Assembly: GCF_000819805.1 (NCBI RefSeq)
Contig: NZ_CDCE01000021.1
Span: forward strand, 62,001 to 126,000
From: Aeromonas diversa CDC 2478-85
GTDB taxonomy: Bacteria; Pseudomonadota; Gammaproteobacteria; Enterobacterales; Aeromonadaceae
Length of the DNA stretch: 64,000 nt
Reading direction: 5' to 3'
Shown: positions 19,661-55,836 of the stretch, piece by piece
How the letters are laid out: the number at the start of each line of letters is the position of its first letter
Numbering within the stretch: position 1 is the first letter of the stretch
Made by a program: the position numbers and the translations under genes
Notes under the pieces: model-generated
Database searches by the model: none
The model's input: the letters and a program-made list of their open reading frames with translations, nothing else
Told to the model about the DNA's origin: nothing

Positions 19661-19674
19661 AATGGTTCCTCGTG

Positions 19675-20907: not shown

Positions 20908-21587
20908 CAAGGGGCCCCGTGCAGGGCGCGGTAAAGGAGTTCGGCCAGGTGCCAATCCTCTTCGGTGTCGATGTCGACCACCCGCCAGCGGGGCAGCGGG
21001 TGCCCGGCGCTTTGGGTGTGGCCATGGAGCCAGGCTTCCCGCGTGGCCCAGTAGAACTGGCCTGCATCTTGATAGGCCTTCTCCAGATCCTGGGAGCGCT
21101 TGGCCATCATCTCGGGCCAGAAGGGGGTGACGTGGCCACGCGCGTCCATGCGTACGGCGCGCTGGATGGGAAAGGCAAATTCCGCCACCGAATAAACGAA
21201 GGGGACGTCCCCTTCCGTCAACTTCTGATAGGCCGCACTCAGGTCGGCTGCCTCGATCAGGGGGACGGTGGCGTAGATGCAGCAGTAGTGATCGCTTGTG
21301 ATACCGAGCGCCTGCAGCCGCGCGATGGTGTCGATGACGACGGGGGTGGTGCCGGTGTGATCGTCGGCCAGCGCCGGTGGGCGCAAGAATGGCACCTCGG
21401 CCCCGAGGGCACGGGCGCACGCGGCGATCTCTTCGTCATCGGTTGAGACCACTATGTGGGTGAAGCAGCCGCTCTGACGGGCCGCCTTGATGGCGTAGGC
21501 CAGCATGGGCTTGCCACAGAAGGGCCGGATGTTCTTGCGCGGTATCCGTTTGCTGCCGCCACGGGCGGGAATGATGGCGATGGCCAC
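20907..21587 (-). CDS. pseF: Pseudaminic acid cytidylyltransferase PseF
   Basis: PseF activates pseudaminic acid with CTP to CMP-Pse, the donor used by Maf1. I choose GTG 21587 (226 aa, MAIAIIPARGGSKRIPRKNI), because GGAGAAAG lies 4 bases upstream; longer in-frame starts do not add family sequence. The nucleotide-binding motif is at residues 4-17, and the CMP-NeuAc synthetase-like YCCIYATVPLIEAADL near 95-110. It is first in the leftward pse operon and shares a short promoter region with the divergent pseH. In Aeromonas it is called neuA. Confidence 0.9.
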   Translation of the reverse strand: MAIAIIPARGGSKRIPRKNIRPFCGKPMLAYAIKAARQSGCFTHIVVSTDDEEIAACARALGAEVPFLRPPALADDHTGTTPVVIDTIARLQALGITSDHYCCIYATVPLIEAADLSAAYQKLTEGDVPFVYSVAEFAFPIQRAVRMDARGHVTPFWPEMMAKRSQDLEKAYQDAGQFYWATREAWLHGHTQSAGHPLPRWRVVDIDTEEDWHLAELLYRALHGAP

Positions 21588-21673
21588 GAAACTTTCTCCT
21601 TTACCGGCCGATACAGGGGGATGATAGCGCAAACCAGTGCCGTAACGCTTGGGAATAAATTGCGGTAAATAAA

Positions 21674-21702
21674 TTGAACCCATTGAATTGTATCGGGATA
21701 AT
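21674..21702 (+). promoter_or_regulatory. Sigma-70 type promoter for pseH operon
   Basis: TTGAAC (21674-21679), a 17-base spacer and GATAAT (21697-21702) lie 26 bases upstream of the pseH start. This is a strong match to the housekeeping promoter and would drive pseH-ACP-FabG-ligase-luxE-luxC. Confidence 0.7.
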
Positions 21703-21728
21703 CGGTGAAAACTGCAAGTTAGGTAGAG

Positions 21729-22271
21729 ATGATGACGAACGATTTTCGCTGGGCGCGTTATGGGGTGACCCTGACGCCGCTTCGTCAGGAAGAGATCGAA
21801 ATGGTGCGGGGCTGGCGCAATGATCCCAAGATCGCCTCGCTCATGCTGGATCAACGCCATATCACAGCCGAGATGCAGCAGGCTTGGTTTGAACGATTGC
21901 AGGCTTCACGGCGCGATGCTTACTATCTCTGCTGGTTTAAGGATAAGCCGATAGGGGTTGCCTCCTTGACGTGCATCGACAAGGACGAGGGCAGCTGCGA
22001 ACCCGGCATGTATATCTATGCCGATGAATACCGCAGTAACCTGGTGCCCTTCTGTGTGGCCTTTGCTCTCAACGAGCTCGCCTTCGAGCATTTTGGGCTC
22101 GCTCGCCTGTTGGGCAAGATCTTTGACGACAACACGGCTTCGGTGCGTTTCCATCAGGCTTCTGGGTATGTTCGCTATGCCACAGGAGAGCAGGGAATTG
22201 GCCTCTATCAGCTTGAGCATGACGCCTACCTGACGGCTCGTGCACAGATCACTCGTTTTATAAGGTATTGA
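21729..22271 (+). CDS. pseH: Pse precursor N-acetyltransferase PseH (GNAT family)
   Basis: PseH N-acetylates UDP-4-amino-4,6-dideoxy-L-AltNAc in the pseudaminic acid pathway. The 180 aa product is a GNAT protein: VTLTPLRQEEIEMVRGWRND at the N-terminus, SCEPGMYIYADEYRSNLVPF in the middle and RLLGKIFDDNTASVRFHQASGY near the C-terminus (acetyl-CoA binding). Together with PseB, C, F, G and I it completes the six-step pathway in this window. ATG 21729 or 21732 may be used; TAGGTAGAG precedes both. The acyl donor could be an acyl-ACP instead of acetyl-CoA, given the ACP gene next door. Confidence 0.85.
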   Translation: MMTNDFRWARYGVTLTPLRQEEIEMVRGWRNDPKIASLMLDQRHITAEMQQAWFERLQASRRDAYYLCWFKDKPIGVASLTCIDKDEGSCEPGMYIYADEYRSNLVPFCVAFALNELAFEHFGLARLLGKIFDDNTASVRFHQASGYVRYATGEQGIGLYQLEHDAYLTARAQITRFIRY

Positions 22272-22273
22272 AC

Positions 22274-22501
22274 ATGAAGCTGGAAACTCTCTTTGCACAG
22301 GCGCTCGGCATTGCTGAGGAGCAGGTTCGAGAAGATCTTACCTATCAATCTATTCCCCAATGGGACTCAGTTGCCCATATGGGCCTCATCGCCCAGCTGG
22401 AAGACGCCTACGGCATCCTGCTCGATACCGATGACATCATCGATATGAGCTCGGTAGCCAAGGCGCGCGAGATCCTGGCCAAGTACGACGTGGCGGCCTA
22501 A
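22274..22501 (+). CDS. Acyl carrier protein (second)
   Basis: Stand-alone ACP of 75 aa with the phosphopantetheine Ser in IPQWDSVAHMGLIAQLEDAY. I start it at ATG 22274, right after the pseH stop; the frame is open back to a TTG at 22268. Its stop shares a base with the FabG-like start (TAATG). It would carry the substrate of the reductase, ligase, LuxE and LuxC encoded next. Confidence 0.85.
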   Translation: MKLETLFAQALGIAEEQVREDLTYQSIPQWDSVAHMGLIAQLEDAYGILLDTDDIIDMSSVAKAREILAKYDVAA

Positions 22502-23232
22502 TGGGCGCCTTACTGCTTGGCAAGCGAGTCTTGATTACCGGGGCGACCCGAGGAATTGGATTGGCGACCGCCCGCCGCTTTGCTGCCGAAGGGGCAACGC
22601 TCTACCTCAATGGACGTGATGAAGGGATCCTTGGCGAGATCTGCGAGCAGCTTGGGGCCACGCCTATCTGTTTTGATGTGAGCGATGCCCAGTCGGTCAA
22701 GTCCGGGTTTCAGCAACTTTTCAAGTTGACCCGAGAGCTGGACGTGTTGGTCAACAATGCCGGAATTCTCGATGATGCCTTGCTGGGCATGGTCAGTCAG
22801 GGCCAGATAGATCGCACCTTTTCTGCCAACACCTACAGCGTGCTCTATTGCAGCCAGTATGCTGCGCGGCTGATGCAGCGTGCCGGGCGGGGCAGCATTA
22901 TCAATCTTTCGTCCATCATCGGCCGGGTCGGAAACAGCGGGCAAGCGGTCTACGGCGGTAGCAAGGCGGCGGTGATCGGCATCACGCACTCTCTGGCCAA
23001 GGAGTTGGCAGGCAGCGGTGTGCGGGTCAATGCCATCGCCCCCGGCTTTATCGACACCGACATGGCGCGCTCGCTCCCCCCCGAGAAGTTCGCCGAGCGG
23101 CTCGCCAGCATCCCCATGGGGCGTATCGGCACCCCCGACGAGGTGGCTGGGGTCGCCCTGTTCCTCGCCTCCGACCTGGCCAATTACGTGACCGGCCAGG
23201 TGATCGGGGTGGATGGGGGAATGGTGATCTGA
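22501..23232 (+). CDS. FabG-like 3-oxoacyl-ACP reductase (SDR)
   Basis: Short-chain dehydrogenase of 243 aa, close in form to FabG, which reduces 3-oxoacyl-ACP with NADPH. The Rossmann motif is in VLITGATRGIGLATARRF (about 10-27), NNAG at about 84, and the catalytic Ser and YxxxK in NLSSIIGRVGNSGQAVYGGSKAAVIG cut here to SGQAVYGGSKAA (about 148-159). The C-terminus VTGQVIGVDGGM is typical of FabG. With the adjacent ACP this points to acyl-chain or hydroxyacyl synthesis for glycan modification rather than bulk fatty acid synthesis. Confidence 0.85.
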   Translation: MGALLLGKRVLITGATRGIGLATARRFAAEGATLYLNGRDEGILGEICEQLGATPICFDVSDAQSVKSGFQQLFKLTRELDVLVNNAGILDDALLGMVSQGQIDRTFSANTYSVLYCSQYAARLMQRAGRGSIINLSSIIGRVGNSGQAVYGGSKAAVIGITHSLAKELAGSGVRVNAIAPGFIDTDMARSLPPEKFAERLASIPMGRIGTPDEVAGVALFLASDLANYVTGQVIGVDGGMVI

Positions 23233-24575
23233 TGGCTGCCCTGCTCGCCCATCTCTACCCCGGCAACCCGGCCCCCGCCTGGTGGGACCCGGCGCTCGGC
23301 TGGCTCAGTTACGGCGATCTGGCCGAGCGGGTGGCCGCCCTGGCTGCCAACTACCCGGCCGGGCGTCAGCTGGTCTATCTGCCCTTTGCCACTTCAACCC
23401 GCCATTTGCTGCACTACCTGCTCGCCCTGCGCGACGGCCACGCCATCATGTTGGCCGATCCGGCCCAGGAGACGGCGCCCCTGTGCCAGCGCTTTGGCGT
23501 GAGCGTGCAGGTGACCGAGGAGGGGGAGTGCCGGCGCCTTCGCGCCGCGCCGACCCTCCACCCCGAGCTGGCGGTGCTGCTGCCCACCTCGGGCAGCACG
23601 GGGGGGAGCAAGTGGGTGCGACTGTCACGGGCGAGCCTCGAGGCCAACGCCGAGGCCATCTGTGCCTACCTCGCCATCGACGGGGGCGAGCGGGCCATTA
23701 CCAGCCTGCCGCTCTTCTATTCGTTTGGCATGTCGGTGCTCAACAGCCACCTGCTCGCCGGCGCCTCGCTAGTGCAGTGCGAGGCAAGCCCGCTTGAGCG
23801 CGGCTTCTGGGAGCGGGTCGATGCCCTCCAGGTCACCAGCGTGGCCGGGGTGCCCTTCACCTACCAGATGCTCTCGCGCCTTCGCTTCGACTGGTCGCGC
23901 CACCCCAGCCTCACCACCCTGACCCAGGCGGGGGGCCGGCTCGAGCCGGCCCTGGCCGAGCGCTTCGCCCGCGAGGCGTTAAGCCTTGGGCGGCGCTTCT
24001 TCGTCATGTATGGCCAGACCGAGGCGGGGCCGCGCATCGCCTGGCTTGGCCACGAGGAGGTGCTGGAGGCCCCCGGCGCCATCGGCCGTGCCATTCCGGG
24101 GGGACATCTCTTCTTGCGCCCCGAGCCTGGCCTGGCGGACGGGGAGGGGGAGCTCCTCGTCGAGGGGCCGAGCGTCATGCTGGGTTATGCCACCGAGGCG
24201 ACGGATCTGGCGCGCGGGCGCGAGACCTGGCAGCTTGCCACCGGCGATCTGGCCCGCTGTGACGAGGCGGGGCGTTTCTACCTCACCGGTCGCTTGAGCC
24301 GCTTCTTGAAGCTCTATGGCAAGCGGGTGAGCCTGGCCGAGGTAGAGGCCTGGCTGCACACCCAGGGGGTGCAGGGGGCGGCCACCGGCCGCGACGATCG
24401 GCTGCTGGTGGCTCTGGAGGGGGAGGGCGATGTCGAGGCCCTGCAGTTGGCGCTCGCTCACTGGCTCAAGGTGACGCCGGCCAGCGTGCGGGTGCAGGCG
24501 GTGGCTGCCTTGCCACGGCGCAGCAACCTCAAGATTGACTATCCGGCCCTGCTGGCCCTGTTGGAGCACCCATGA
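23232..24575 (+). CDS. AMP-dependent acyl-CoA/acyl-ACP ligase
   Basis: Adenylate-forming ligase of 447 aa. The A3 loop is AVLLPTSGSTGGSKWVRLS (about 114-132), A5 is FVMYGQTEAGPRI (about 257-269), A7 ATGDLARCDEAGRFYLTGR (about 336-354), and the C-terminal catalytic Lys is in RRSNLKIDYPAL. It is shorter than most family members, with a reduced N-terminal part. It may activate a short acid and load it on the ACP at 22274. It overlaps both neighbours by one to four bases. Confidence 0.82.
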   Translation: MAALLAHLYPGNPAPAWWDPALGWLSYGDLAERVAALAANYPAGRQLVYLPFATSTRHLLHYLLALRDGHAIMLADPAQETAPLCQRFGVSVQVTEEGECRRLRAAPTLHPELAVLLPTSGSTGGSKWVRLSRASLEANAEAICAYLAIDGGERAITSLPLFYSFGMSVLNSHLLAGASLVQCEASPLERGFWERVDALQVTSVAGVPFTYQMLSRLRFDWSRHPSLTTLTQAGGRLEPALAERFAREALSLGRRFFVMYGQTEAGPRIAWLGHEEVLEAPGAIGRAIPGGHLFLRPEPGLADGEGELLVEGPSVMLGYATEATDLARGRETWQLATGDLARCDEAGRFYLTGRLSRFLKLYGKRVSLAEVEAWLHTQGVQGAATGRDDRLLVALEGEGDVEALQLALAHWLKVTPASVRVQAVAALPRRSNLKIDYPALLALLEHP

Positions 24576-25627
24576 ACGAGCTGCTGAGCGCTCCCGTATT
24601 CGGCCTGCCCCAGGCCGACAAAGCGGCCCTGTTGCTCGGGCGCCTCAATGCCCTCACTGCCCGGCACAGGGCGGCCTGCGCCCCTTACGACAACATCCTC
24701 TCGGCCTATGGCTGGGGGGAAGCCGGAGATGACGAGAGTCTGCCCTATCTGGCGGCGCGCCTCTTTAAACTGGCGCGTTGGCAGAGTGTGCCGGACCAAG
24801 AGGTGTTCAAGGTGCTCACCTCCTCGGGCACCACGGGGGCCCCCTCGCAGATCGTGCTGGATCGGGAAACTGCCGCCTTGCAGAGCAAGGTGCTGGTGAA
24901 GATCCTGCAAGAGTTTGTCGGCAAGCAGCGCCTGCCCATGCTGCTGGTGGAGCAGCCGGCTCTCATTCAGAGCCGAGCGGGCTTCTCGGCCCGTGGCGCC
25001 GGTGCCCTGGGGCTGTCGTTTCTCGGGCGCGATCACACCTATGCCCTCGATGAGCAGATGCGACCCAACTGGTCGGCCATCGAGGGGTTTTGTGAAAAAT
25101 ATGCCGGCCAGCCGGTGTTGCTGTTTGGCTTCACCTTCATGGTGTGGCAGTGCCTGCTTGAGCCGCTGCGTGAGCGGGGGCTCACACTGCCCCTTGAGCA
25201 GGGCGTGCTGTTTCACAGCGGAGGCTGGAAGAAGCTGACCCACCTGGCGGTGGACAACGCCGCCTTCAAGGGGCGCTGCCGCGAGCGGCTGGGGCTGTCA
25301 CGGGTGCACAACTTCTACGGCATGGTCGAGCAGGTGGGTTCAGTGTTTGTCGAGTGTGAGGCGGGCCACCTGCACGCCCCTGTGTTTGCCGATCTGCTGG
25401 TGCGCGATCCTCTGACTCACGCGCCGCTGCCGATGGGGCAGGCGGGGCTGCTGCAGGTGCTTTCGGCGATCCCGCAAAGCTATCCGGGTCACTCCCTGCT
25501 GACCGAGGACATGGGGCGACTGCTGGGCCGTGATGACTGTCCATGCGGTCGCAAGGGGCACTATTTCGAGGTTTTGGGGCGCCAGCGTGGCGCCGAGGTA
25601 CGGGGATGCAGCGACACCTTCTCATAG
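24572..25627 (+). CDS. LuxE-like acyl-protein synthetase
   Basis: LuxE adenylates a fatty acid and passes the acyl group to its own Cys and then to LuxC. The 351 aa product shows FKVLTSSGTTGAPSQIVLDR (about 85-104) and the C-terminal DDCPCGRKGHYFEVLGR with the conserved Cys-x-Cys of this family. It starts in an ATGA overlap with the ligase and overlaps luxC by 22 bases. There are no luxAB genes here, so the pair is not for light production but for making an acyl or aldehyde group in the glycan pathway, as also seen in other Aeromonas flagellar islands. Confidence 0.85.
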   Translation: MNELLSAPVFGLPQADKAALLLGRLNALTARHRAACAPYDNILSAYGWGEAGDDESLPYLAARLFKLARWQSVPDQEVFKVLTSSGTTGAPSQIVLDRETAALQSKVLVKILQEFVGKQRLPMLLVEQPALIQSRAGFSARGAGALGLSFLGRDHTYALDEQMRPNWSAIEGFCEKYAGQPVLLFGFTFMVWQCLLEPLRERGLTLPLEQGVLFHSGGWKKLTHLAVDNAAFKGRCRERLGLSRVHNFYGMVEQVGSVFVECEAGHLHAPVFADLLVRDPLTHAPLPMGQAGLLQVLSAIPQSYPGHSLLTEDMGRLLGRDDCPCGRKGHYFEVLGRQRGAEVRGCSDTFS

Positions 25628-26805
25628 ACGGCCAGACCGACGCGGCGGTGGGGGACGACTGGACCCAGGCCCCCGAGGTCACCATGGCACTGCCAGAGAG
25701 CAGTTGGGTGGCGTTTGAGCCTGTGCCACTCCCTTGTGCCGCACCCGTTATTATCTCGTTTCTGGCCGCGCTCTCGGCGCGTCTACAACAGGTCGGGCGC
25801 GATTGGCCCGATCTGGCGGCCTTCGGCTTCTGGCTACGCGAACGCAATCAGGCCTCACAGGTTGCCCGCATGGCTGGCCGCGCACCACTCGGGGTGGTGT
25901 TTCACCTGGTGCCTTCCAACGTGCCGACCGTGGCGTTCTATTCCTGGCTGATGGCGTTGCTCGCGGGCAACGCCAGCGTGGTGCGTCTCTCTTCACGGCA
26001 GGACCCCGAGCAAGAAGCCATGCTCCGGATCCTCGCCGAGCTGTTTGCCGAACCCGGTTGGCAAGCGATCGCCCAGCGTACCCGCTTTATCCGCTACGGT
26101 CATGATGAGACCATCACCGGGTGGCTGAGCGCGCGCTGCGCCCTTCGCATTATCTGGGGGGGCGATGAGACCATACGCGCCGTGCGAGCCATCCCCCTTG
26201 CGCCTCACGCCCAGGAAGTGGTGTTTCCGGATCGCCGTTCGCTGGCGCTTATCGACAGCCACTGGCTGGCCGGGCTGGACGAGCACGGCTGGAAGCGCGC
26301 CGTGCGGGGGCTACGGCTCGATTGCACCCGCTTTAACCAGTTCGCCTGTGCCTCACCTACCACCCTGGTGTGGTTGGGGAGTCCGCCGCCTGCGGTGCGC
26401 CAGCGTCTGCTTGAGGAGACGTTTGCTCCCTTTGCCGACGATCCGCGGCTGACCATGGAGCGGCTGGTGCAGTGTCAGATGAATGTCGCCGGTGGTGGTA
26501 CTGATGCGCTGACCAGGTTGGCAGGCGTCACCGTCTTGACGCAGTCGACGCCCTCTGCGTTGCAACACATCGGAGGAGGTACAGTTGCCGAGTGGGTGGC
26601 CGATAACTGGGAAGCGGTGCAGACGCAGCCCTGGTCGATGCAGACCTGCGTCTACCTAGGCGAATCCTTGTCGACGGCGCGCGAGCGCCTGGGGGCAGCT
26701 CGAGGGCGCATCGACCGGGTGGTGGCGCCGGGGCAGGCCTTGGCATTTGACTGGTTCTGGGATGGCATCGAGCTGCCGATGGTCTGCAGTCGGGCTGTTC
26801 GTTAG
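25606..26805 (+). CDS. LuxC-like acyl reductase
   Basis: LuxC is an acyl-CoA/acyl-protein reductase of the aldehyde dehydrogenase superfamily that yields an aldehyde. I choose ATG 25606 (399 aa, MQRHLLIDGQTDAAVGDDW), inside the luxE end; the frame is open further upstream. Family blocks are LGVVFHLVPSNVPTVAFYSW (about 95-114), the Arg-rich CALRIIWGGDETI (about 179) and NQFACASPTTLVWLG (about 243-257) with a candidate active Cys. It closes the rightward operon begun by pseH. Confidence 0.85.
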   Translation: MQRHLLIDGQTDAAVGDDWTQAPEVTMALPESSWVAFEPVPLPCAAPVIISFLAALSARLQQVGRDWPDLAAFGFWLRERNQASQVARMAGRAPLGVVFHLVPSNVPTVAFYSWLMALLAGNASVVRLSSRQDPEQEAMLRILAELFAEPGWQAIAQRTRFIRYGHDETITGWLSARCALRIIWGGDETIRAVRAIPLAPHAQEVVFPDRRSLALIDSHWLAGLDEHGWKRAVRGLRLDCTRFNQFACASPTTLVWLGSPPPAVRQRLLEETFAPFADDPRLTMERLVQCQMNVAGGGTDALTRLAGVTVLTQSTPSALQHIGGGTVAEWVADNWEAVQTQPWSMQTCVYLGESLSTARERLGAARGRIDRVVAPGQALAFDWFWDGIELPMVCSRAVR

Positions 26806-26864
26806 ATATCCAATATTGGGTGCCCATCACATAACTACAGCCAGATCAAAGAATTACGTTGGTC

Positions 26865-26880
26865 TGGCACGCCTCTTGCC
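26865..26880 (+). promoter_or_regulatory. Sigma-54 type promoter before the glycosyltransferase operon
   Basis: TGGCAC (26865-26870), five bases, then TTGC (26876-26879): an exact match to the sigma-54 core TGGCAC-N5-TTGC with the GG and GC 10 bases apart. Transcription would start near 26891, about 95 bases before the likely GT start. Polar flagellar genes of Aeromonas are partly sigma-54 dependent, so this would tie glycan genes to the flagellar cascade. Confidence 0.65.
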
Positions 26881-26988
26881 TTAAAACAATCATACAAGGG
26901 GAGAAGGGTTGACAGGGACCGTGCGGTAGCCTTGCCAAAAATTACCCTCTCCCTCTCCTTTCTGTCTGTTTTTCCCGCGGATATGCCT

Positions 26989-27942
26989 ATGAAAGTCAGT
27001 GTACTGGTGCCGGTTTATAACCTCGAGCGCTTCATCGAGCCGTGCCTGCTGAGCCTGCTCGAGCAGCAGACCCAGTTCGATTTCGAGGTGATCGCCATCG
27101 ACGATGGCTCGAGCGACGGCTCCTGGAGCATCATGAGGCGCTTGGCGGCAGACTGGCCACAGCTAACAGCATTACAGAACCCGGCCAATATGGGTCTGGC
27201 CAGAACCCAGAAACGGTTACTGGGTGAAGCCAAGGGGCAGTACATCGTCTACGTCGATGGGGATGATTTAGCCTTACCGGGCAAGTTACAGGTGCTTGCC
27301 GATTATCTAGACCAACATCCCGAGTGTGCGCTTTGTTATCACGAAGCTGAAGTCTTCGACAGCGACACGGGTCTGGTGACGGGTCATTACAGCCGTGATT
27401 ATTACAACGCGGCGTATATTCCCCAGCAAGCCAGTGTGGAGCATCTGATCCGCTATGGCTGTTTTCCCAACGCCAGTGCGATCGCGTTCAGACGCCATCC
27501 GCATCTGCAGGAAGCGGTGGATGGGGAGTGCAAGATTATCCTCGATCACCCATGGCATATTCTAAATGCCCTCTATGCCGGAGGGAGCGTGGATGGCATC
27601 CCGGGGGTGTATGGCCGTTACCGGATCCATTCCCAGAGCTTTGGAGGGCAAACCAAGCGCTCGCCCACCCGTCGCGAACAGGTCCTCGCAGATCAACTAA
27701 AAGCTTGTGACAACGCTCGCCCGTTTGGTATTGCCGAGTCAGTCATCGCTGCCGGCAAGGCACACTATCGATTTGCCACTGCGCTCTATTTTCTCAAGCA
27801 AGGTGATATTGGCCGTTTCGAGCGCTTCATCAATGAGTCTGTGGTTGATGGCTGGTTTTTCGATGCGCGTCATCAGCTGGCGTGGGAAAAACGTGCCGAG
27901 GCCGCGGCGGTGGCCCAGCATCTTTTTGGAGAGGCGTCATGA
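26989..27942 (+). CDS. Family 2 glycosyltransferase
   Basis: GT-A fold glycosyltransferase (317 aa from ATG 26989). The N-terminus VSVLVPVYNLERFIEPCLLS and the DxD-like YIVYVDGDDLALPGKLQ (about 83-99) mark the nucleotide-sugar site. Starts at 26983 and a TTG at 26932 are also in frame; no strong ribosome site decides among them. It overlaps glf by four bases (ATGA). The sugar donor is not predictable; UDP-galactofuranose from the next gene is one possibility. Confidence 0.8.
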   Translation: MKVSVLVPVYNLERFIEPCLLSLLEQQTQFDFEVIAIDDGSSDGSWSIMRRLAADWPQLTALQNPANMGLARTQKRLLGEAKGQYIVYVDGDDLALPGKLQVLADYLDQHPECALCYHEAEVFDSDTGLVTGHYSRDYYNAAYIPQQASVEHLIRYGCFPNASAIAFRRHPHLQEAVDGECKIILDHPWHILNALYAGGSVDGIPGVYGRYRIHSQSFGGQTKRSPTRREQVLADQLKACDNARPFGIAESVIAAGKAHYRFATALYFLKQGDIGRFERFINESVVDGWFFDARHQLAWEKRAEAAAVAQHLFGEAS

Positions 27943-43708: not shown

Positions 43709-44494
43709 ATGATTATCAATAAAAAAATATCTCACAATGAACTACTTACCCGTGTGAAAGAGATCGTGCCTGAGCGCTCCGTGACGTTGCTTCTGGCAAA
43801 AGTATTTTCTATGTTAAGACAACGAGGTGGGGCTTTTGTGCAATTATGTGGCGACGAGAAAGCGTGCCGCGCCGCATTATTGAGTGGAATGTTTGACGGC
43901 GTGCTTGCTGAACGTGATCCCTGGATGATTAATTCATCCCCTCTCACATTGTGGATCCATGATGAAGACAATCAAAAAGTATCTATAAATATAGAGCGTC
44001 TTTACCAACAAATATTTTGGGTTTTCCATGAGCAAGAATTGATTGGCACATCCGGTCATGAATGTTTGGTTGGTTATCGTGAAAATTTATTCCATGGAAT
44101 GGACAGTACTGTTCGTCATTTTTGCGATTTTGATTGGCATGTGAATAAGTTTATTCCATGTCTGGCTAGATTGCTAAAACTATTTCACCAAGAGCCTGAT
44201 AGAAAGTTGATATTGTTTGGGACGGGAGCCGGTAGTATGCATCTCGACAAAAGTGCCCTATTTGACGGGGTTCAGTACGGGTGGTCCGACAACAATGTGG
44301 CATTACATAATAGTATGATATCGGGTCTTCCGGTTATTCCGCCGCTCCATCTTGTGCCAGGTGAGCATTTTGTATTAATTATGAGCAGCTGGTATAAAGA
44401 GATATCTGAGCAGTTAATACAAATGGGCTTTGTAGAAGGCGACGACTTTATATCAGGCTTGAGCTTGTACTATTCCCTCACTCTGTTTTTTTAA
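43709..44494 (+). CDS. Unknown protein carrying the Rossmann module
   Basis: I do not recognise the first 165 residues of this 261 aa protein (MIINKKISHNELLTRVKEIV; they look soluble and helical). From about residue 168 it carries the module seen in the glycosyltransferases and methyltransferases upstream: RKLILFGTGAGSMHLDKSAL, then YGWSDNNVALHNSMISGLPV and FVLIMSSWYKEISEQLIQMG. It is the first gene of the block that includes the predicted phosphoramidate pathway and lies 27 bases before the sulfotransferase-like gene. It may bind a nucleotide or nucleotide-sugar. Confidence 0.6.
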   Translation: MIINKKISHNELLTRVKEIVPERSVTLLLAKVFSMLRQRGGAFVQLCGDEKACRAALLSGMFDGVLAERDPWMINSSPLTLWIHDEDNQKVSINIERLYQQIFWVFHEQELIGTSGHECLVGYRENLFHGMDSTVRHFCDFDWHVNKFIPCLARLLKLFHQEPDRKLILFGTGAGSMHLDKSALFDGVQYGWSDNNVALHNSMISGLPVIPPLHLVPGEHFVLIMSSWYKEISEQLIQMGFVEGDDFISGLSLYYSLTLFF

Positions 44495-44521: not shown

Positions 44522-45559
44522 ATGTATTTCGACACATGCTTGCTATCTTTACAAAGGACAGGAACGCTTGCTGCTCATGCTATACTCTATCGCCATCCAA
44601 GCATCAATCTACCAAGGTCAGATATTAATGACCAATTATTAAGTCATAATCGACTTGCGCTGGGAGAATCCCGTGATGTCAATATATTTTCAATACATTA
44701 CCCAAAAACACTGTGGAATTTAAATAAAGTATTTCCATATTTTACCGGCGAGCGAATGCTTCATGTCGTAAGAAATCCGTTAGACAATCTGCGTAGCTGC
44801 TATAATGCCGCGTCGTATAGTAATGCAATTGGGTTATATGGTTGTCCTGCTGAGGGGCGACGTACATGGTTAGGGAATTTCTTCAATGTGCTGGATTCGT
44901 ATAGTGGATGTAATTCGATTGCTGCCGGCGTGCCACTGTATGATCAATTCAAAGACGTTAAATGTATAGACTTTTCTGAATTGCTGCCGGCTCGGATTGA
45001 CGCTACCGGACTGGAAATGTATAGGTGGCTTGGCTTAAATCCTGGCTTGGCAAAGAAACAATCTTCTGATAGACATCATACTTACAATGATATTCATCTC
45101 CTCATTTTGCGAGAAGCGCTATGGCTCGATTTTGATAACAAACATAGATTGCCAATCTATATAACGCTATATGATCAACTACCTGATCCTTCTCATCCAG
45201 CTGCAATCAATGCGTCTCAAAATTTCATTCGGCTTTGCTCTATCGACGTTTCTAACTCTAGAATATCAGACATATTGCACCTAGATGAAATGTGTATATC
45301 AATTAACACGTATCAACTCATGGCGTTACCCCGTGAGGTGCAAGAATTTTTTGCGAGTAATTATGAGGTTCTGATCATGGAGGGCTTATCTGCATGGGCC
45401 GAGCGACTCTTTGAGAAAGATCAAGAAGCCAGAAAGGAGCAGATTGATGAGTTGCCACAAGTTGCCAAGGACACGATAAAAAAGTTAATTTCACCTCATT
45501 TAGATAAATTCTATAAACGATTTCCTCATATAGAAGCATTATGGGGGCTTGAGCTTTGA
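44522..45559 (+). CDS. Sulfotransferase-like protein, candidate phosphoramidate transferase
   Basis: The 345 aa product reads as a sulfotransferase-fold protein. The N-terminal loop DTCLLSLQRTGTLAAHAIL (about 3-21) corresponds to the 5'-phosphosulfate loop, and MLHVVRNPLDNLRSCYNAA (about 80-98) to the 3'-phosphate-binding motif with its Arg and Ser. I choose ATG 44522. The next gene (TTGA overlap) is APS-kinase-like and, in the context of the genes after it, would make 3'-phospho-CDP-amidate, a donor shaped like PAPS. I infer that this protein may transfer the phosphoramidate from that donor to a sugar. A plain sulfotransferase is the alternative, but no ATP sulfurylase is seen here. Confidence 0.65.
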   Translation: MYFDTCLLSLQRTGTLAAHAILYRHPSINLPRSDINDQLLSHNRLALGESRDVNIFSIHYPKTLWNLNKVFPYFTGERMLHVVRNPLDNLRSCYNAASYSNAIGLYGCPAEGRRTWLGNFFNVLDSYSGCNSIAAGVPLYDQFKDVKCIDFSELLPARIDATGLEMYRWLGLNPGLAKKQSSDRHHTYNDIHLLILREALWLDFDNKHRLPIYITLYDQLPDPSHPAAINASQNFIRLCSIDVSNSRISDILHLDEMCISINTYQLMALPREVQEFFASNYEVLIMEGLSAWAERLFEKDQEARKEQIDELPQVAKDTIKKLISPHLDKFYKRFPHIEALWGLEL

Positions 45560-46116
45560 CAAAAAAGGGAAAGGTCATCTGGCTTACCGGTCTCTCTGGC
45601 GCTGGAAAAACAACCTTGGCAAGACGCGTCGTCAGTTTTCTAAAATCCAGAGAACATGCCGTTATCATGCTTGACGGGGATGAGCTAAGAGCGATATTTG
45701 CTCAAAGTGATAGTAATGGAAGTCATCATAGTGCTCAGAAAAGACTCGAATTGGCACTAAGATACTGTGCGTTGTGCAAGCTTTTGTCTGAGCAGGGTAT
45801 TACCGTTGTTATAGCAACAATCTCTCTTTTCCATAAGGTGCATAAATGGAATCGGTTGCATTTACCTAATTACATAGAAATATATTTGAAGGTCCCTATT
45901 GAAGAACTAAAGCGAAGAGACCCTAAAGGAATTTACTCTAGTTATGAAGCGGGCGATACGCGCTATGTGGCTGGGATTGATGTCGCTGTTGAAGAGCCTC
46001 AATCGCCGAACCTTACTTTGAGCTTTCAATCCGGTGATACAGTGGATAAATACTTCGACACTATAATAGAATACATTCTTGATTCTGAAATAAAATATGA
46101 GGATATAACATTATGA
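45556..46116 (+). CDS. APS-kinase-like protein, predicted cytidine diphosphoramidate kinase
   Basis: CysC-like P-loop kinase of 186 aa (TTG start in a TTGA overlap). It has the Walker A in VIWLTGLSGAGKTTLARRV (about 7-25), the LDGDELR block (about 39-45) and VVIATISLFHKVHKWNR (about 94). The substrate region between DGDELR and ATIS departs from true APS kinases. The Campylobacter jejuni counterpart Cj1415 phosphorylates the 3'-OH of cytidine diphosphoramidate. Four of the five following reading frames fit the other steps of that pathway, so I assign the same role by context. A real APS kinase is possible but no sulfate activation genes are nearby. Confidence 0.72.
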   Translation: MTKKGKVIWLTGLSGAGKTTLARRVVSFLKSREHAVIMLDGDELRAIFAQSDSNGSHHSAQKRLELALRYCALCKLLSEQGITVVIATISLFHKVHKWNRLHLPNYIEIYLKVPIEELKRRDPKGIYSSYEAGDTRYVAGIDVAVEEPQSPNLTLSFQSGDTVDKYFDTIIEYILDSEIKYEDITL

Positions 46117-46907
46117 GTATCAATATAAAGAAGGGCGATTTTACAGGCTTGGCTGATAACTATTCTAAATATCGGCCTGATTATAGCCTTTCTGTTTTGA
46201 AGGCAATTCTTTCTTACACGGGAAAAAGGGTAGAGAACATTGACTTTGCTGATGTAGGTGCCGGTACCGGGATATGGACTCGGATGGTTTGTGGACAAGG
46301 TGTACGCTCTGCATACGCGATTGAACCAAACGATGATATGCGAGCTGCTGGTCAGGCATATCCTTCAAATGCAGATAGCTTGGCTGAGATTAAATGGGCT
46401 GTTGGCAGTGCAGAAAAAACAAATTTGGAAAGTAACAGTTTAGACCTTTTGACTATGGCTTCTTCGTTCCATTGGGCTGATTTTGAAAAGGCAACGAAAG
46501 AATTTAATCGTGTACTGCGGGATGGCGGTCTATTTGTTGCCTTGTGGAATCCTCGTCTTATTGAGAAAAATCCAGTTCTTGTTGATATTGAAAATCAGCT
46601 TTGTAAGCTCAAGCATGATATAGAAAGAGTCTCATCTGGTCGTTCTGGTATTACAGATACACTCGCAGATAGATTATCCGAGAGTCCATATTTCGATGAT
46701 GTTTTATACCTCGAAGGGCGACACTGCATTCGTATGAGCAAGGAAAGGTATATGGGGGCATGGCGGTCAGTCAATGATCTTCAGGCTCAACTTGGGAGTC
46801 AATTGTTTGAAGATTTTCTTAAGTATGTCGAAGATAAAATATCTGAACTAGATGTTATTGAAGCAACATATTTGACTCGTGCTTGGGTTGCAAAGAACAA
46901 GAGATAA
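46113..46907 (+). CDS. SAM-dependent methyltransferase of the phosphoramidate block
   Basis: Class I methyltransferase of 264 aa. Motif I is NIDFADVGAGTGIWTRMV (about 42-59), the acidic end of strand 2 is AIEPNDDM (about 69), and LLTMASSFHWADFEKATKEF (about 113-132) matches the methyltransferase-11 type. It overlaps the kinase gene by four bases. In C. jejuni two methyltransferases (Cj1419, Cj1420) accompany the phosphoramidate genes and are thought to supply the O-methyl group. Only one lies in this block, so it is the best candidate here for that step. Confidence 0.75.
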   Translation: MSINIKKGDFTGLADNYSKYRPDYSLSVLKAILSYTGKRVENIDFADVGAGTGIWTRMVCGQGVRSAYAIEPNDDMRAAGQAYPSNADSLAEIKWAVGSAEKTNLESNSLDLLTMASSFHWADFEKATKEFNRVLRDGGLFVALWNPRLIEKNPVLVDIENQLCKLKHDIERVSSGRSGITDTLADRLSESPYFDDVLYLEGRHCIRMSKERYMGAWRSVNDLQAQLGSQLFEDFLKYVEDKISELDVIEATYLTRAWVAKNKR

Positions 46908-46909
46908 AT

Positions 46910-49222
46910 ATGAGAGCCACTTTCTCCAGTAAAGCTGACACCTTGAAATCGTTAATGCCACTAGTTCGTTCAGCCAAGATAGCTCCAATATCAGTTATTA
47001 TGTCATACGAGTGGATGGCGGATTCTGCATATTGTCTTAATAAGATAAATGATGAATTGCCTAAGGTTAGTCGTTTTATTGTACGTTCCAGCTGTAGTAG
47101 CGAAGATACGTCTGTCTCTTCTAATGCTGGTGCATACCTTTCTCTGCTGAATGTCAGGCCTGAAGAGTTACCAGAAGCGATAACATCAGTTATTGATTCT
47201 TATCATGGCAATGGTAATGAACAGATTTTAATCCAGCCAATGTTAAATCAAGTTATCCGTAGTGGTGTTGCCTTCACACATGACCCTACGACTTGTTCCC
47301 CATATCATCTAATTAATTGGGATGAGGGTGAGGATACTAGTTTTGTAACATCCGGGCAGGGTGGGCGTTGCTGGCAAGGAGCAGCCGTAATGCCTGATTG
47401 CATCACTATTCCTAAAGAAATTTCTTCAGTTCGAAAGTTGCTCCTCGAACTAGAAATGCTTTTTTCACAGCCGCTTGACTGTGAGTTCGCGGTGACGGCA
47501 GATGAAAGCCTGTGGCTTCTACAGGTCAGACCGTTAGTCTTAAGAGAGGCACCTCAGAACAAAGAACGACAGAGCCATCTACTGAAACTTATCGAAGACC
47601 GTTTAGAAAAGGGATTTTGTCATCATCCTTTCTTAATGGGTGAGAGAACAGTTTTTGGTGTAATGCCTGATTGGAATCCTGCTGAAATAATTGGTATTCG
47701 GCCCAAGCCCCTGGCATTGAGTCTTTATCGTGAGCTAGTTACTGATTCAATATGGGCATATCAGCGTCATAATTACGGTTACAGAAATTTACGAAGCTTT
47801 CCATTAATGCCTCATTTATTTGGCTTGCCTTATATAGATGTAAGGTTATCGTTCAACTCATTCATCCCTGCTGATTTAGATGATGAGTTGGCTGGGCGCT
47901 TGGTTGATTTTTATATAAAACGTCTTCAATCACAGCCTGCTCTTCATGATAAGGTGGAGTTTGAGATCGTATTTTCTTGTTACACCCCTGACCTGAATGA
48001 GAGGTTACAAGTATTGAAGGCTGAGGGGTTCTCTGATGAAGATGTAATAAGTATATCCGATTCTTTGAAGAGGTTAACTAATAGAGTTATTGACCCGTCT
48101 ACAGGTATTTGGCGCTCGGATGAGAAGAAATTAAAAACGCTAATGGAACGCCATGAAGAGATCATGAGTTCCAATCTGGATCTCGCGGGGAAGATTTATT
48201 GGCTACTAGAGGATGCAAAGCGATATGGAACACTCCCGTTTGCGGGGCTTGCCAGGGCAGGTTTCATGTCTGTGCAGATATTAAAATCACTCGTTAATGT
48301 TGGTATATTAACAAGCGGTGATTATGATTCGTTCATGTCTAGTTTACAGACTATCACCAGTTCTTTGTCATTGGATCGAGAAAATTTTGATAAAGGATAT
48401 TTTTTAAAAAAATATGGTCATCTTAGACCAGGAACTTATGACATTCTATCTAAGCGTTATGATGAAGACCCTGATTTATATTTTGATTGGAACTCGGAAG
48501 GGAAAGATTGTATTGAGTTAAATCGCCATTTCAGCCTCACCATACATCAGATGCGAGCGCTGCGGTGTCTGTTGACTGAGCATGAATTGAAACCTAATGT
48601 GGTCGAGTTGTTCGATTTTTTACAGGCCGGTATCGAGCTTAGAGAACTGTCTAAATTCCATTTTACGAAAAATTTATCTGATGCATTATCTTTAGCTAAT
48701 GAATTAGCTATGAAATATGGATTTAGCCGCGAAGACATAGCATTTTGTGACATTCGTGCACTTCAGGAGTTGCACGTTGCTGCATGCGACCCATTAGAAA
48801 TACTAGCTGATGCTATCACTAGAGGGAAAAAAAGATATAAAGATACCTGCAGTTTATCTCTGCCTCCATTAATCAGTGAAGTAGAACAAATATATAGTTT
48901 CGAGTGGCCTGATATACTTCCAAATTTCATAACACAAAAAAATATCATATCTGAGGTCGCACCAACCCTTGATAAAGAAAGACTAAACGGGAGAGTTGTG
49001 TGCATCCCAAACGCGGATCCTGGTTTCGATTGGATTTTTTCATATAACATATCGGGGTTGATCACCGCGTGGGGGGGGGTTAACTCTCATATGGCAATAC
49101 GAGCAGGTGAGTTAGGTATACCTGCCATTATCGGTGCTGGGGAGAGACGTTTTACAATGTGGTCTATGGCTAAATGTCTCGAGATTGATTGTGCAGGGAA
49201 ACGGGTTGAAGTTATTTGCTGA
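46910..49222 (+). CDS. PEP synthase-like enzyme, predicted L-glutamine kinase (Cj1418-like)
   Basis: The 770 aa product has the layout of PEP synthase-like phosphotransferases. An N-terminal ATP-grasp domain shows RFIVRSSCSSEDTSVSSNAG (about 53-72), SGVAFTHDPTT (about 120) and LDCEFAVTADESLWLLQVRP (about 190-209). The C-terminal swivelling domain has the phospho-His in GGVNSHMAIRAGELGIPAII (about 722-741). C. jejuni Cj1418, of similar length, uses this fold to phosphorylate the amide nitrogen of L-glutamine, the first step to phosphoramidate. The next two genes match the following two steps, which is why I prefer this over PEP synthase or rifampicin phosphotransferase. A nine-G run (49071-49079) sits in the AWGG codons. 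Confidence 0.8.
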   Translation: MRATFSSKADTLKSLMPLVRSAKIAPISVIMSYEWMADSAYCLNKINDELPKVSRFIVRSSCSSEDTSVSSNAGAYLSLLNVRPEELPEAITSVIDSYHGNGNEQILIQPMLNQVIRSGVAFTHDPTTCSPYHLINWDEGEDTSFVTSGQGGRCWQGAAVMPDCITIPKEISSVRKLLLELEMLFSQPLDCEFAVTADESLWLLQVRPLVLREAPQNKERQSHLLKLIEDRLEKGFCHHPFLMGERTVFGVMPDWNPAEIIGIRPKPLALSLYRELVTDSIWAYQRHNYGYRNLRSFPLMPHLFGLPYIDVRLSFNSFIPADLDDELAGRLVDFYIKRLQSQPALHDKVEFEIVFSCYTPDLNERLQVLKAEGFSDEDVISISDSLKRLTNRVIDPSTGIWRSDEKKLKTLMERHEEIMSSNLDLAGKIYWLLEDAKRYGTLPFAGLARAGFMSVQILKSLVNVGILTSGDYDSFMSSLQTITSSLSLDRENFDKGYFLKKYGHLRPGTYDILSKRYDEDPDLYFDWNSEGKDCIELNRHFSLTIHQMRALRCLLTEHELKPNVVELFDFLQAGIELRELSKFHFTKNLSDALSLANELAMKYGFSREDIAFCDIRALQELHVAACDPLEILADAITRGKKRYKDTCSLSLPPLISEVEQIYSFEWPDILPNFITQKNIISEVAPTLDKERLNGRVVCIPNADPGFDWIFSYNISGLITAWGGVNSHMAIRAGELGIPAIIGAGERRFTMWSMAKCLEIDCAGKRVEVIC

Positions 49223-49232
49223 GGAGCTTCAA

Positions 49233-49835
49233 TTGAAGTTTGCACTTGTTACATGTAGATTGGATGACATCTTAACTAGAGATGAATGTCGAAATTCACT
49301 TGATCAGCGACTCTCTGACTGGATTTTAAGGCTTGGTTTCACCCCGCTTTTGCTGACTACGGGAATATCGAATTATCAGTTAGAACTGATTGTTGAGTCA
49401 ATAAAGCCTCATTTATTAGTCTTAAGTGGAGGCAATACTCCTGGTGAGAAGCCAGAGAGAGATACTCTCGAGCTAAATATAATAAAGCTGGCTAAAGAAA
49501 GATCCGTCCCATTATTAGGTATATGCCGTGGGATGCAAATGTTAGGGGTCGCGGAGGGGGTATCTCTAAAAGCAGTGGCCGCCCACTCAGGTTGCAAGCA
49601 TATCATACAAGGTGAAATCTCTAGGTGTGTGAATAGCTACCATCAATATGCTCTAGATTGTATTCCACCTGGTTACGTTGGTTTGGCAAATACCGACGAT
49701 GGTTGTGTCGAGGCTATTTCCCACAAAGTCCATCCAATAATGGGAATTATGTGGCATCCCGAGCGTGAAGTTAACTTTCTTAAAGAAGATATTGATTTTG
49801 TCTTGAATCGATTATTTGGAGTGAGTGATGACTAA
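49233..49835 (+). CDS. Class I glutamine amidotransferase-like, predicted gamma-glutamyl-CDP-amidate hydrolase
   Basis: GATase-1 fold hydrolase of 200 aa. I choose TTG 49233 because GAGGAG lies 6 bases upstream and the protein then begins LKFALVTCRLDDILTRDECR. The nucleophile Cys is in VPLLGICRGMQMLGVAEG (about 88-105), and His and Glu of the triad are in IMGIMWHPEREVNF (about 170-183). Length matches C. jejuni Cj1417, which hydrolyses CDP-L-glutamine to cytidine diphosphoramidate and glutamate. It sits between the predicted glutamine kinase and the cytidylyltransferase, as expected for that pathway. Confidence 0.8.
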   Translation: MKFALVTCRLDDILTRDECRNSLDQRLSDWILRLGFTPLLLTTGISNYQLELIVESIKPHLLVLSGGNTPGEKPERDTLELNIIKLAKERSVPLLGICRGMQMLGVAEGVSLKAVAAHSGCKHIIQGEISRCVNSYHQYALDCIPPGYVGLANTDDGCVEAISHKVHPIMGIMWHPEREVNFLKEDIDFVLNRLFGVSDD

Positions 49836-50595
49836 AGGGTTGATTCTAGCTGCAGGACGAGGAAGTCGGATGGGAGATTTAACTTCTGATAGGCCAAAAT
49901 GTCTCAATATGCTGAGAGGAAAGCTATTGCTTGATTATCAAATATCGGCTTTTCGTAGTGCAGGGATTAGTGAGATCGGCATTGTTAGTGGTTACAAGCA
50001 TGAGATGTTGAATTCGTTTGATCTTGTCGAGTTCCATAATGATCGGTGGTATGAAACCAACATGGTGTCATCTCTCGAATGTGCTGCATCATGGCTTGAT
50101 TCAGATGATGTTATTGTTAGCTACTCGGATATTTTTTATCACTCTGATGCAATAACATCTTTGCTTGACAGCGATGGTATTATTTCAATTACTTATGATG
50201 ACAGGTGGCTGTCACAATGGTCAGGCCGCTTTGTAGACCCATTGTCTGATGCTGAAACATTTATTATCGACAAAAAAGGTAAGTTACTTGAAATTGGTAA
50301 TAAACCGCATAACCTAGCCGATATTGATGGTCAATATATGGGGTTGTTGAAGTTCACTCCCCAGGCATGGAGAAATGTCCAAGTTATACGCAGTATGATG
50401 GCGGTGGAGGAACGGTCTCAAATGCACATGACCGCCACATTGGATCGGTTATGTAAAATAATTGACATCCATTGCATTCCATATGAAGGTATATGGGGAG
50501 AAATTGACTCGCCTAGTGATATAGATTATTTTGAGAGAACACTGCCTTCCGATGCGTTCACCAACTGGTGTTTTCCCAATAATAGGCATGGTTGA
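49828..50595 (+). CDS. Nucleotidyltransferase, predicted CTP:phosphoglutamine cytidylyltransferase
   Basis: Nucleotidyltransferase of 255 aa (ATG 49828, GGAG 6 bases upstream, overlapping the hydrolase by 8 bases). The N-terminal GLILAAGRGSRMGDLTSDRP (about 4-23) and KCLNML with the conserved Lys form the NTP site; YSDIFYHSD (about 99) carries metal-binding acid residues. C. jejuni Cj1416 uses CTP and L-glutamine phosphate to make CDP-L-glutamine. The kinase and hydrolase genes upstream make this the likely activity. A generic sugar-1-phosphate or choline-phosphate transferase would be the alternative. Confidence 0.78.
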   Translation: MTKGLILAAGRGSRMGDLTSDRPKCLNMLRGKLLLDYQISAFRSAGISEIGIVSGYKHEMLNSFDLVEFHNDRWYETNMVSSLECAASWLDSDDVIVSYSDIFYHSDAITSLLDSDGIISITYDDRWLSQWSGRFVDPLSDAETFIIDKKGKLLEIGNKPHNLADIDGQYMGLLKFTPQAWRNVQVIRSMMAVEERSQMHMTATLDRLCKIIDIHCIPYEGIWGEIDSPSDIDYFERTLPSDAFTNWCFPNNRHG

Positions 50596-52038: not shown

Positions 52039-52049
52039 AAAGGATGGTT

Positions 52050-53381: not shown

Positions 53382-55836
<2,455 letters not shown>

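What the first reader, a model, noticed from the sequence alone, without database searches (positions are those of the whole stretch)
45556..50595. Complete predicted phosphoramidate (MeOPN-type) pathway inside a flagellar glycan island
Five consecutive, overlapping or closely spaced genes match the C. jejuni capsular O-methyl phosphoramidate enzymes by fold, size and motif: APS-kinase-like (Cj1415), a SAM methyltransferase (Cj1419/1420 role), PEP-synthase-like glutamine kinase with phospho-His (Cj1418), class I amidotransferase-like hydrolase with Cys-His-Glu (Cj1417) and nucleotidyltransferase (Cj1416). Each alone could be something else, but the set is hard to explain by another pathway. 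In Campylobacter the modification is on capsule; here the genes lie between Maf1 and PseB/C, so the likely target is a flagellin glycan or other surface glycan of Aeromonas. I do not know of a report of this modification in Aeromonas.
Basis: partly seen in the sequence, partly recalled or inferred. Interest (0 to 1): 0.95.

Follow-up and report, generated by a model that had tools for sequence, protein, structure and literature searches.

The report
Phosphoramidate cassette in flagellar glycan island
The flagellar sugar-modification island of what is likely an Aeromonas carries a gene set predicted to make a rare phosphorus-nitrogen tag known from Campylobacter capsules, and likely to fix it onto the flagellum's sugars with a sulfotransferase-shaped enzyme; relatives of its key gene turn up in many other microbes.

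The parts
44522..45559 (+). sulfotransferase-fold protein, 345 aa; predicted (methyl)phosphoramidate transferase
45556..46116 (+). APS-kinase-like protein; predicted CDP-(methyl)amidate 3'-kinase (Cj1415 role)
   Evidence: PF01583 1.4e-29; NF004041 194 bits over cut-off 127, TIGR00455 apsK 108.8 below its cut-off 138.7; lacks the SP[YF] motif that both other APS kinases of the genome and 4 of 4 displayed PDB APS kinases have
46113..46907 (+). SAM-dependent methyltransferase; predicted O-methylation of the phosphoramidate
   Evidence: Methyltransf_11 3e-15; same position in L017 and L018 at 67 and 65% identity
46910..49222 (+). predicted ATP:L-glutamine kinase (Cj1418 role)
   Evidence: PPDK_N + PEP-utilizers; NF004508 957 bits; GG-x-NSHMAIR with the His invariant in 14 of 14 aligned sequences, window included; its role as phospho-His is recalled
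49233..49835 (+). predicted gamma-glutamyl-CDP-amidate hydrolase (Cj1417 role)
   Evidence: best NCBIfam model NF045546 88.3 bits, below the 250 cut-off; GICRGMQ and WHPER motifs visible in the translation and similar ones in relatives
49825..50595 (+). predicted CTP:phosphoglutamine cytidylyltransferase (Cj1416 role)
   Evidence: NTP_transf_3 1.9e-17; PDB matches include CTP:phosphocholine cytidylyltransferase 1jyk 8e-9
43709..44494 (+). 261-aa protein of unknown family directly before the sulfotransferase-fold gene; short relatives sit beside the corresponding genes in L017 and L018
   Evidence: no family; relatives at 32 and 34% over 90 and 97 residues
53382..54521 (-). PseC
   Evidence: TIGR03588 539 bits, over cut-off
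54518..55528 (-). PseB
   Evidence: TIGR03589 552 bits, over cut-off
18614..21860 (-). PseI (18614-19660), PseG-containing ORF (19675-21420), PseF (20907-21860)
   Evidence: all over NCBIfam cut-offs
22501..27942 (+). group II island markers: FabG-like, AMP-binding, LuxE, LuxC, then a GT2 glycosyltransferase at the fgi-1 position (26932-27942)
   Evidence: layout as in PMC7874193
5382..12655 (+). two flagellins (5382-6299, 7028-7939), FliD (8348-9835), Maf (10565-12655)
   Evidence: Pfam

Best explanation
The six genes at 44522-50595 likely form a biosynthesis-and-transfer cassette that is predicted to build 3'-phospho-CDP-(methyl)phosphoramidate from glutamine, ATP and CTP and would move the (methyl)phosphoramidate group onto a sugar of the polar flagellin glycan. 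[quoted passage not shown] (2) the 49825 enzyme couples the product to CTP; (3) the 49233 hydrolase removes glutamate, leaving CDP-amidate; (4) the 45556 APS-kinase-like enzyme adds a 3'-phosphate to the ribose; (5) the 46113 methyltransferase O-methylates the phosphoramidate, at a step that cannot be fixed from sequence; (6) the 44522 sulfotransferase-fold protein reads the 3'-phosphonucleotide as sulfotransferases read PAPS and transfers the group to a glycan hydroxyl. Shown here: gene content, order, families, predicted fold of 44522, motifs, recurrence and island context. Inferred from the Campylobacter pathway (titles and passages seen; the chemistry largely recalled): steps 1-4. Proposed here: step 6. 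Inferred from location: flagellin as target. My confidence: steps 1-4 about 0.85; step 6 about 0.6; flagellin glycan as target about 0.7; all together about 0.5.
For: Families and scores. Conserved five-gene order in L017 and L018. His motif invariant in 14 of 14 aligned sequences. Sulfotransferase fold. A same-strand sulfotransferase-like gene within two genes of the core, or the probable fusion, in 18 of 40 cassettes with the APS-kinase-like gene (17 without counting the fusion) and 9 of 73 without it (Fisher 1.8e-4); after collapsing kinases at 60% identity 13 of 30 and 3 of 45 clusters (2.9e-4). In the two same-strand slots upstream of the APS-kinase-like gene 8 of 39 genes are sulfotransferase-like, against 18 of 393 other genes of those loci (p 0.001). 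Of 56 profile hits 20 were given to Pfam: 15 match a Sulfotransfer family at E<=0.01 and 9 pass its cut-off; among the 11 of these that were not profile seeds, 9 and 5. The APS-kinase-like proteins lack SP[YF] in 38 of 40, which both other APS kinases of this genome keep. Island context. Of the four other genomes of the genus with the kinase, three have the cassette next to pseC/pseB and the fourth has it on a contig with PseI, PseF, LuxE and LuxC. Flagellin genes directly precede the kinase in L101, L103 and L131.
Against: No chemistry was seen. The hydrolase scores far below its model's cut-off (88 of 250). The window's 44522 protein has no Pfam hit, nor do four other scanned profile hits (L017, first L018 copy, L090, L099). 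Foldseek's best E is 3.4e-4 with TM about 0.3. In 10 of the 12 aligned sequences the motif's Ser is Ala, though not in the window's. The sulfotransferase profile was seeded from nine proteins of the loci counted, six of them chosen because Pfam had already named them, so the association is not blind; within short-kinase cassettes it is weak (p 0.05-0.15 at 60-95% clustering, 1 at 50%), and over all loci at 50% clustering p is 0.067. Some of the 18 are short or weak (L094 102 aa; L137 E 3e-4), and 11 of the 18 have Pfam support at E<=0.01. In 22 of 40 none was found; 8 of 40 have a CDP-glycerol-transferase-like gene near. The Azospirillum fusion rests on motifs and one sub-threshold Pfam hit (E 0.012); profile comparison gave 17 columns and 3% probability. 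Published AH-3 flagellin ions (204.1, 284.1) fit plain phosphate on HexNAc; whether AH-3 has this cassette is unknown.
Confidence: 0.5

Rival explanations
1. The cassette makes phosphoramidate, but 44522 is an ordinary PAPS-dependent sulfotransferase that adds sulfate to the same glycan; another island gene transfers the phosphoramidate.
For: The fold is that of PAPS enzymes. The genome has two further, canonical-looking APS kinases, so PAPS could be available. In Campylobacter HS:19, APS kinase plus sulfotransferase, with CysD and CysN, is read as sulfation (PMC8743553 passages). Proteins without any family match lie in the island.
Against: No CysD/CysN appeared among the island genes scanned (not every ORF was scanned). 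The adjacent APS-kinase-like protein lacks the SP[YF] motif. Sulfotransferase-like genes track cassettes that have this kinase. No other Sulfotransfer_3 match was found in the genome, though the window protein is not found by that model either.
Confidence: 0.22
2. The tag is made as proposed but decorates LPS/O-antigen or another surface glycan rather than flagellin.
For: Phosphoramidate without the methyl group is reported in LPS of Xanthomonas campestris and Shewanella (PMC3907429 passage). PMC7874193 notes that some islands (IIB, IIIB) may feed other structures.
Against: This island lies next to flagellins, FliD and Maf, the IIA layout. It carries PseBCFGI, LuxC/E and the glycosyltransferase at the fgi-1 position. 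Deleting fgi-1 to fgi-12 in AH-3 lowered polar flagellin mass.
Confidence: 0.18
3. The genes make a soluble phosphoramidate natural product.
For: Some relatives, such as the Agrobacterium vitis plasmid cassette, show no glycan genes in the annotated stretch and no APS-kinase-like gene.
Against: Here the cassette lies between glycosyltransferases and pseC/pseB, and recurs in such islands in the genus.
Confidence: 0.04
4. The 46910 protein is a PEP synthase or antibiotic phosphotransferase, the others being unrelated modification genes.
For: Shares PPDK_N and PEP-utilizers domains with these.
Against: 49.4 bits of 850 (PEP synthase) and 23.9 of 999 (rifamycin phosphotransferase) against 957 of 501 for NF004508; company of hydrolase and nucleotidyltransferase in most loci.
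Confidence: 0.02

Closest known systems
Campylobacter jejuni O-methyl phosphoramidate (MeOPN) pathway, Cj1415-Cj1418 with Cj1419-Cj1422
   Same: Four biosynthesis genes in one cluster with transferases (PMC3907429, PMC9561416 passages); the match of enzyme types gene by gene is recalled
   Different: Capsule there, flagellar island here; different gene order (recalled) and an adjacent methyltransferase; the candidate transferase has a sulfotransferase fold, and whether Cj1421/Cj1422 share it could not be tested because no sequence was obtained
PAPS-dependent glycan sulfotransferases (e.g. heparan 3-O-sulfotransferases)
   Different: Predicted donor is a cytidine 3'-phospho-phosphoramidate, not PAPS; no sequence-level Pfam match
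Group II flagella glycosylation islands of Aeromonas (PMC7874193)
   Same: Same layout: pse genes split, LuxC/E, glycosyltransferase after luxC, Maf, flagellins
   Different: A term search of that paper's main text found no mention of phosphoramidate or sulfotransferase; it mentions 'phospho- transferases' only in general
Cassettes with CDP-glycerol:glycerophosphotransferase-like genes (PF04464), e.g. L040, L020, Vibrio alfacsensis plasmid
   Same: Same glutamine-kinase, hydrolase and nucleotidyltransferase core
   Different: A PF04464-like gene lies near the core; most long-kinase cassettes lack the APS-kinase-like gene (54 of 61)

Membership tests
Cj1415-1418-type phosphoramidate donor pathway | Kinase with ATP-grasp-type and phospho-His-type domains, distinct from PEP synthase | tested here: met
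Cj1415-1418-type phosphoramidate donor pathway | Hydrolase meeting the gamma-glutamyl-CDP-amidate hydrolase equivalog model | tested here: inconclusive
   best model but 88.3 of 250 bits; of eight hydrolases from other cassettes six score 89-127 bits, all below the cut-off, and two are not listed at E<=1e-20
Cj1415-1418-type phosphoramidate donor pathway | Cytidylyltransferase of the NTP-transferase fold beside the kinase | tested here: met
   by family only; 105 of 113 loci
Cj1415-1418-type phosphoramidate donor pathway | APS-kinase-like CDP-amidate kinase | tested here: met
   by family and motif only; substrate not tested
Cj1415-1418-type phosphoramidate donor pathway | Direct sequence relation to Cj1415-Cj1422 | not tested
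   no Campylobacter sequence obtained
Cj1415-1418-type phosphoramidate donor pathway | Enzyme activities on glutamine, CTP, CDP-amidate | not testable with these tools
   needs purified enzymes
PEP synthase / rifamycin phosphotransferase | NCBIfam equivalog cut-offs | tested here: not met
   49.4 of 850 and 23.9 of 999 bits
Canonical APS kinase (CysC) | TIGR00455 cut-off and SP[YF] motif | tested here: not met
   108.8 of 138.7 bits; ISLF instead of ISPY. It does pass NF004041, a subfamily model named adenylyl-sulfate kinase
Sulfotransferase superfamily | Sulfotransferase fold | tested here: met
   predicted model only
Sulfotransferase superfamily | Pfam Sulfotransfer gathering score for the window protein | tested here: not met
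   0 families; 44%-identical P0123 19.2 of 27 bits
Group II flagella glycosylation island | pseBC and pseFGI split by a segment with LuxE, LuxC and a glycosyltransferase after luxC, plus Maf | tested here: met
   orf1 (acyl carrier protein), pseH and identity to AH-3 fgi-1 itself not tested

The most novel reading that the evidence does not exclude
Phosphoramidate is a second activated-group currency beside sulfate: across bacteria and some archaea an APS-kinase-derived enzyme makes a cytidine mimic of PAPS, and enzymes of the sulfotransferase fold transfer (methyl)phosphoramidate from it to surface glycans, among them flagellin glycans. That would explain why the Campylobacter pathway adds a 3'-phosphate at all.
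Probability: 0.45. Interest if true: 0.9.

Novelty: new variant of a known kind. Interest (0 to 1): 0.74.

Why it matters
If true, phosphoramidate decoration is not a Campylobacter speciality but a widespread surface chemistry. It would reach flagella (motility, phage and immune recognition), and the 3'-phosphate of the donor would have a reason: it is the handle a sulfotransferase-fold enzyme reads. It also offers a concrete recheck of published Aeromonas flagellin spectra: HexNAc with methyl phosphoramidate (297.085) differs from HexNAc with methyl phosphate (298.069) by 0.984 Da. P-N bonds are acid-labile (recalled), so such groups could be recorded as phosphate.

Tried and rejected
Rejected: PEP synthase or rifamycin phosphotransferase. 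DGDN as a marker of true APS kinases: PDB enzymes vary there, so only SP[YF] is used. An association between the APS-kinase-like gene and PF04464-like genes: none (8 of 40, 15 of 73, p 1). Profile comparison A4 against A6 is not used because two proteins are in both alignments. A regex for sulfotransferase motifs was too narrow and was replaced by profiles. A protein search with the single 44522 sequence found only itself and P0123. The 114 loci are not a random sample: 80 are the best matches of a scan led by a Vibrio kinase, 8 (L017-L024) come from the first fetches, 25 (L128-L152) from later ones, one is the window. At least two repeat a contig or record in another guise (L034/L144 have the same length and layout; L068 is the record of plasmid hit H7).

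Literature: two of the original enzyme papers asked for, on glutamine kinase and on CDP-amidate kinase, are not held, so the enzyme chemistry is largely recalled. Searches for a prior report, seen as listings with titles and starts of abstracts: phosphoramidate+flagellin+glycan+Aeromonas, 1 paper, a review on infection models; glutamine kinase, phosphoramid, gene cluster, at least 2 of 3, 25 of 181 listed; phosphoramidate, sulfotransferase, PAPS, capsular polysaccharide, at least 3 of 4, 20 of 28 listed; phosphoramidate+lipopolysaccharide+Shewanella, 2 papers; Aeromonas, flagellin, phosphorylated, HexNAc, methyl, at least 4 of 5, 8 of 64 listed. Nothing in these listings announces such a cassette in Aeromonas; most papers of subscription journals are not in the library. 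Papers seen in passages: PMC6429109, PMC12409886, PMC3907429, PMC9561416, PMC8743553, PMC10919079; PMC7874193: abstract, passages, section 15, and the first parts of sections 16 and 21.
Full report
WHAT IS THERE. The five ORFs exist as described, with two start corrections: kinase ATG 46910 and hydrolase TTG 49233 behind GAGGAG. Their families are an APS-kinase-like protein, a class I methyltransferase, a PPDK_N/PEP-utilizers protein, an amidotransferase-like hydrolase and an NTP_transf_3 nucleotidyltransferase. In NCBIfam the kinase scores 957 bits to NF004508 (cut-off 501; the model is named 'hypothetical protein'), far above PEP synthase (49.4) and rifamycin phosphotransferase (23.9). The APS-kinase-like protein passes NF004041 (194, cut-off 127) but not apsK TIGR00455 (108.8, cut-off 138.7). 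The hydrolase's best model is gamma-glutamyl-CDP-amidate hydrolase at 88.3 bits, below the cut-off of 250.

CONTEXT. The window holds two flagellins, FliD and Maf, and PseB, PseC, PseF, PseG and PseI, all over their NCBIfam cut-offs. It also holds FabG-like, AMP-binding, LuxE, LuxC and glycosyltransferase genes in the layout of the group II flagella glycosylation island of Aeromonas (PMC7874193); orf1 and pseH of that layout were not looked for. GC is 40-42% over 36-52 kb, against 61-65% over 12-28 kb and 56-64 kb, as for an acquired segment.

DISTRIBUTION. In the genus, 5 of 37 genomes have the kinase, the window's included. Two (L017, L018) share the same five-gene order at 39-67% identity. 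In L017, L018 and L019 the cassette adjoins pseC/pseB (77-79% and 87-89% identity); in L020 the contig carries PseI, PseF, LuxE and LuxC. L019 and L020 carry a different cassette: kinase 34-38% identical and no methyltransferase hit. L020 has a PF04464 gene (1e-12); the corresponding L019 gene is found by profile only, not by Pfam. So two different phosphoramidate-type cassettes appear to have entered the same island. Beyond the genus the family is broad. A protein search scored 7,996 candidates, those sharing most words with the query, and 7,795 passed E 0.001. Yet it is sparse: 14 of 398 genomes in a phylum draw and 9 of 369 in a class draw at E<=1e-60, and 2 of 185 over the NF004508 cut-off in another class draw, own genome counted each time. 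A review calls the enzyme C. jejuni-specific (PMC9561416 passage); these data disagree, on homology.

DOES THE SULFOTRANSFERASE FOLD BELONG WITH THE CASSETTE? I took 114 loci (window, L017-L104, L128-L152); 113 gave a kinase. The APS-kinase-like gene is within 10 kb in 40. A same-strand sulfotransferase-like gene within two genes of the core, or the probable fusion, occurs in 18 of those 40 (17 without counting the fusion) and in 9 of the 73 others (Fisher 1.8e-4). Of the 18, eleven have Pfam support at E<=0.01 (L018, L063, L081, L092, L096, L104, L128, L141, L145, L146, L148); the window has fold support; L017 and L099 have none from Pfam; L024 is sub-threshold; L058, L094 (102 aa) and L137 (profile E 3e-4) were not scanned. 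Collapsing kinases at 60% identity gives 13 of 30 and 3 of 45 clusters (2.9e-4). Within short kinases alone at that level it is 10 of 24 and 2 of 14 (p 0.15; 0.05 at 70%, 0.13 at 95%, 1 at 50%), and over all loci at 50% clustering 3 of 12 and 0 of 16 (p 0.067). So part of the signal is shared ancestry. In the two upstream slots of the APS-kinase-like gene, 8 of 39 genes are sulfotransferase-like, against 18 of 393 others (p 0.001). The profile was seeded from nine proteins of these loci, six picked because Pfam had named them, so this is not blind. Of 56 profile hits I gave 20 to Pfam, mostly from cassettes with the APS-kinase-like gene: 15 match a Sulfotransfer family at E<=0.01 and 9 pass the cut-off; among the 11 that were not seeds, 9 and 5. 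Matches come from loci labelled Pirellula, Nitrospina, Alphaproteobacteria and Paenibacillus among others. The window protein, L017, the first L018 copy, L090 and L099 do not match. In two Azospirillum plasmids the APS-kinase domain ends an 838-846-aa protein followed by methyltransferase, kinase, hydrolase and nucleotidyltransferase. Its N-terminus carries VRNPFDWY[VI]SS, but Pfam gives only a sub-threshold Sulfotransfer_2 hit (0.012) and profile comparison 17 columns at 3%. I call this fusion probable, not shown.

IS THE APS-KINASE-LIKE PROTEIN AN APS KINASE? The genome has two further APS-kinase matches. Both have TAFISP[YF]; four of four displayed PDB APS kinases have SPY at this place. 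Of 40 cassette proteins, 38 lack SP[YF] (all but L104 and L146), and 29 carry WNR a few residues on. L146's copy lies about 8 kb from its kinase and may be a true APS kinase. A change in this loop would fit a base other than adenine; that is inference.

FLAGELLAR LINK ELSEWHERE. Flagellin genes lie directly before the kinase in L101, L103 and L131; L061 has flagellins and FliD about 6-9 kb away and L135 a Maf-like gene; L137 has PseB and PseC. With the window and L017-L020 that is 11 of the 113 loci. L044 also has PseI- and PseF-like genes (56 and 49%).

MECHANISM. As in Best explanation. The chemistry of steps 1-4 is taken from the Campylobacter pathway (titles and passages; details recalled). 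The new element is step 6: the 3'-phosphate makes the donor look like PAPS, so a sulfotransferase-fold enzyme can use it. Cassettes without the APS-kinase-like gene mostly have a longer kinase (54 of 61 long-kinase loci lack it), and some have a PF04464-like gene that might use CDP-amidate directly; that is a guess, and PF04464-like genes are equally common with and without the APS-kinase-like gene.

WHAT IS NOT SETTLED. No Campylobacter sequence was obtained, so orthology to Cj1415-Cj1422 was not tested directly, and whether Cj1421/Cj1422 have the sulfotransferase fold is open. Published AH-3 ions fit phosphate (284.05) rather than phosphoramidate (283.07) on HexNAc. Either AH-3 lacks the cassette, the P-N bond was lost, or the reading is wrong.

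Noticed in passing
L019, L020 (same genus) against window 44522-50595: A second, different phosphoramidate-type cassette (kinase 34-38% identical, no methyltransferase hit, PF04464-like gene in L020 by Pfam and in L019 by profile, formyltransferase-like gene in L019) lies in the flagellar island of two other genomes of the genus.
   Followed up: partly
L101, L103, L131: Flagellin genes lie directly upstream of the glutamine-kinase homologue in other Gammaproteobacteria.
   Followed up: partly
61 long-kinase loci (mostly in L023-L104): Many kinases carry a roughly 220-aa N-terminal extension of unknown function; 54 of 61 such loci lack the APS-kinase-like gene.
   Followed up: no
window 43709-44494; L017 8664-9101; L018 7833-8306: A protein of unknown family sits beside the sulfotransferase-fold gene in three islands; its C-terminal part resembles a Rossmann-like segment also seen in 37325-38320 and 38437-40026 (by eye).
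   Followed up: partly
window 40026-42833: WbqC-like protein, radical SAM/SPASM protein and WecE-like aminotransferase in a row, perhaps making an unusual amino sugar of the same glycan.
   Followed up: no
window 51022-53216: GalE-like epimerase/dehydratase and nucleotide-sugar (UDP-glucose-type) dehydrogenase between the cassette and pseC.
   Followed up: no
L022 (Agrobacterium vitis plasmid): Kinase, hydrolase and nucleotidyltransferase followed by a LysE translocator and a CDP-alcohol phosphatidyltransferase, with no APS-kinase-like gene in the stretch: possibly a phosphoramidate lipid or small molecule.
   Followed up: no
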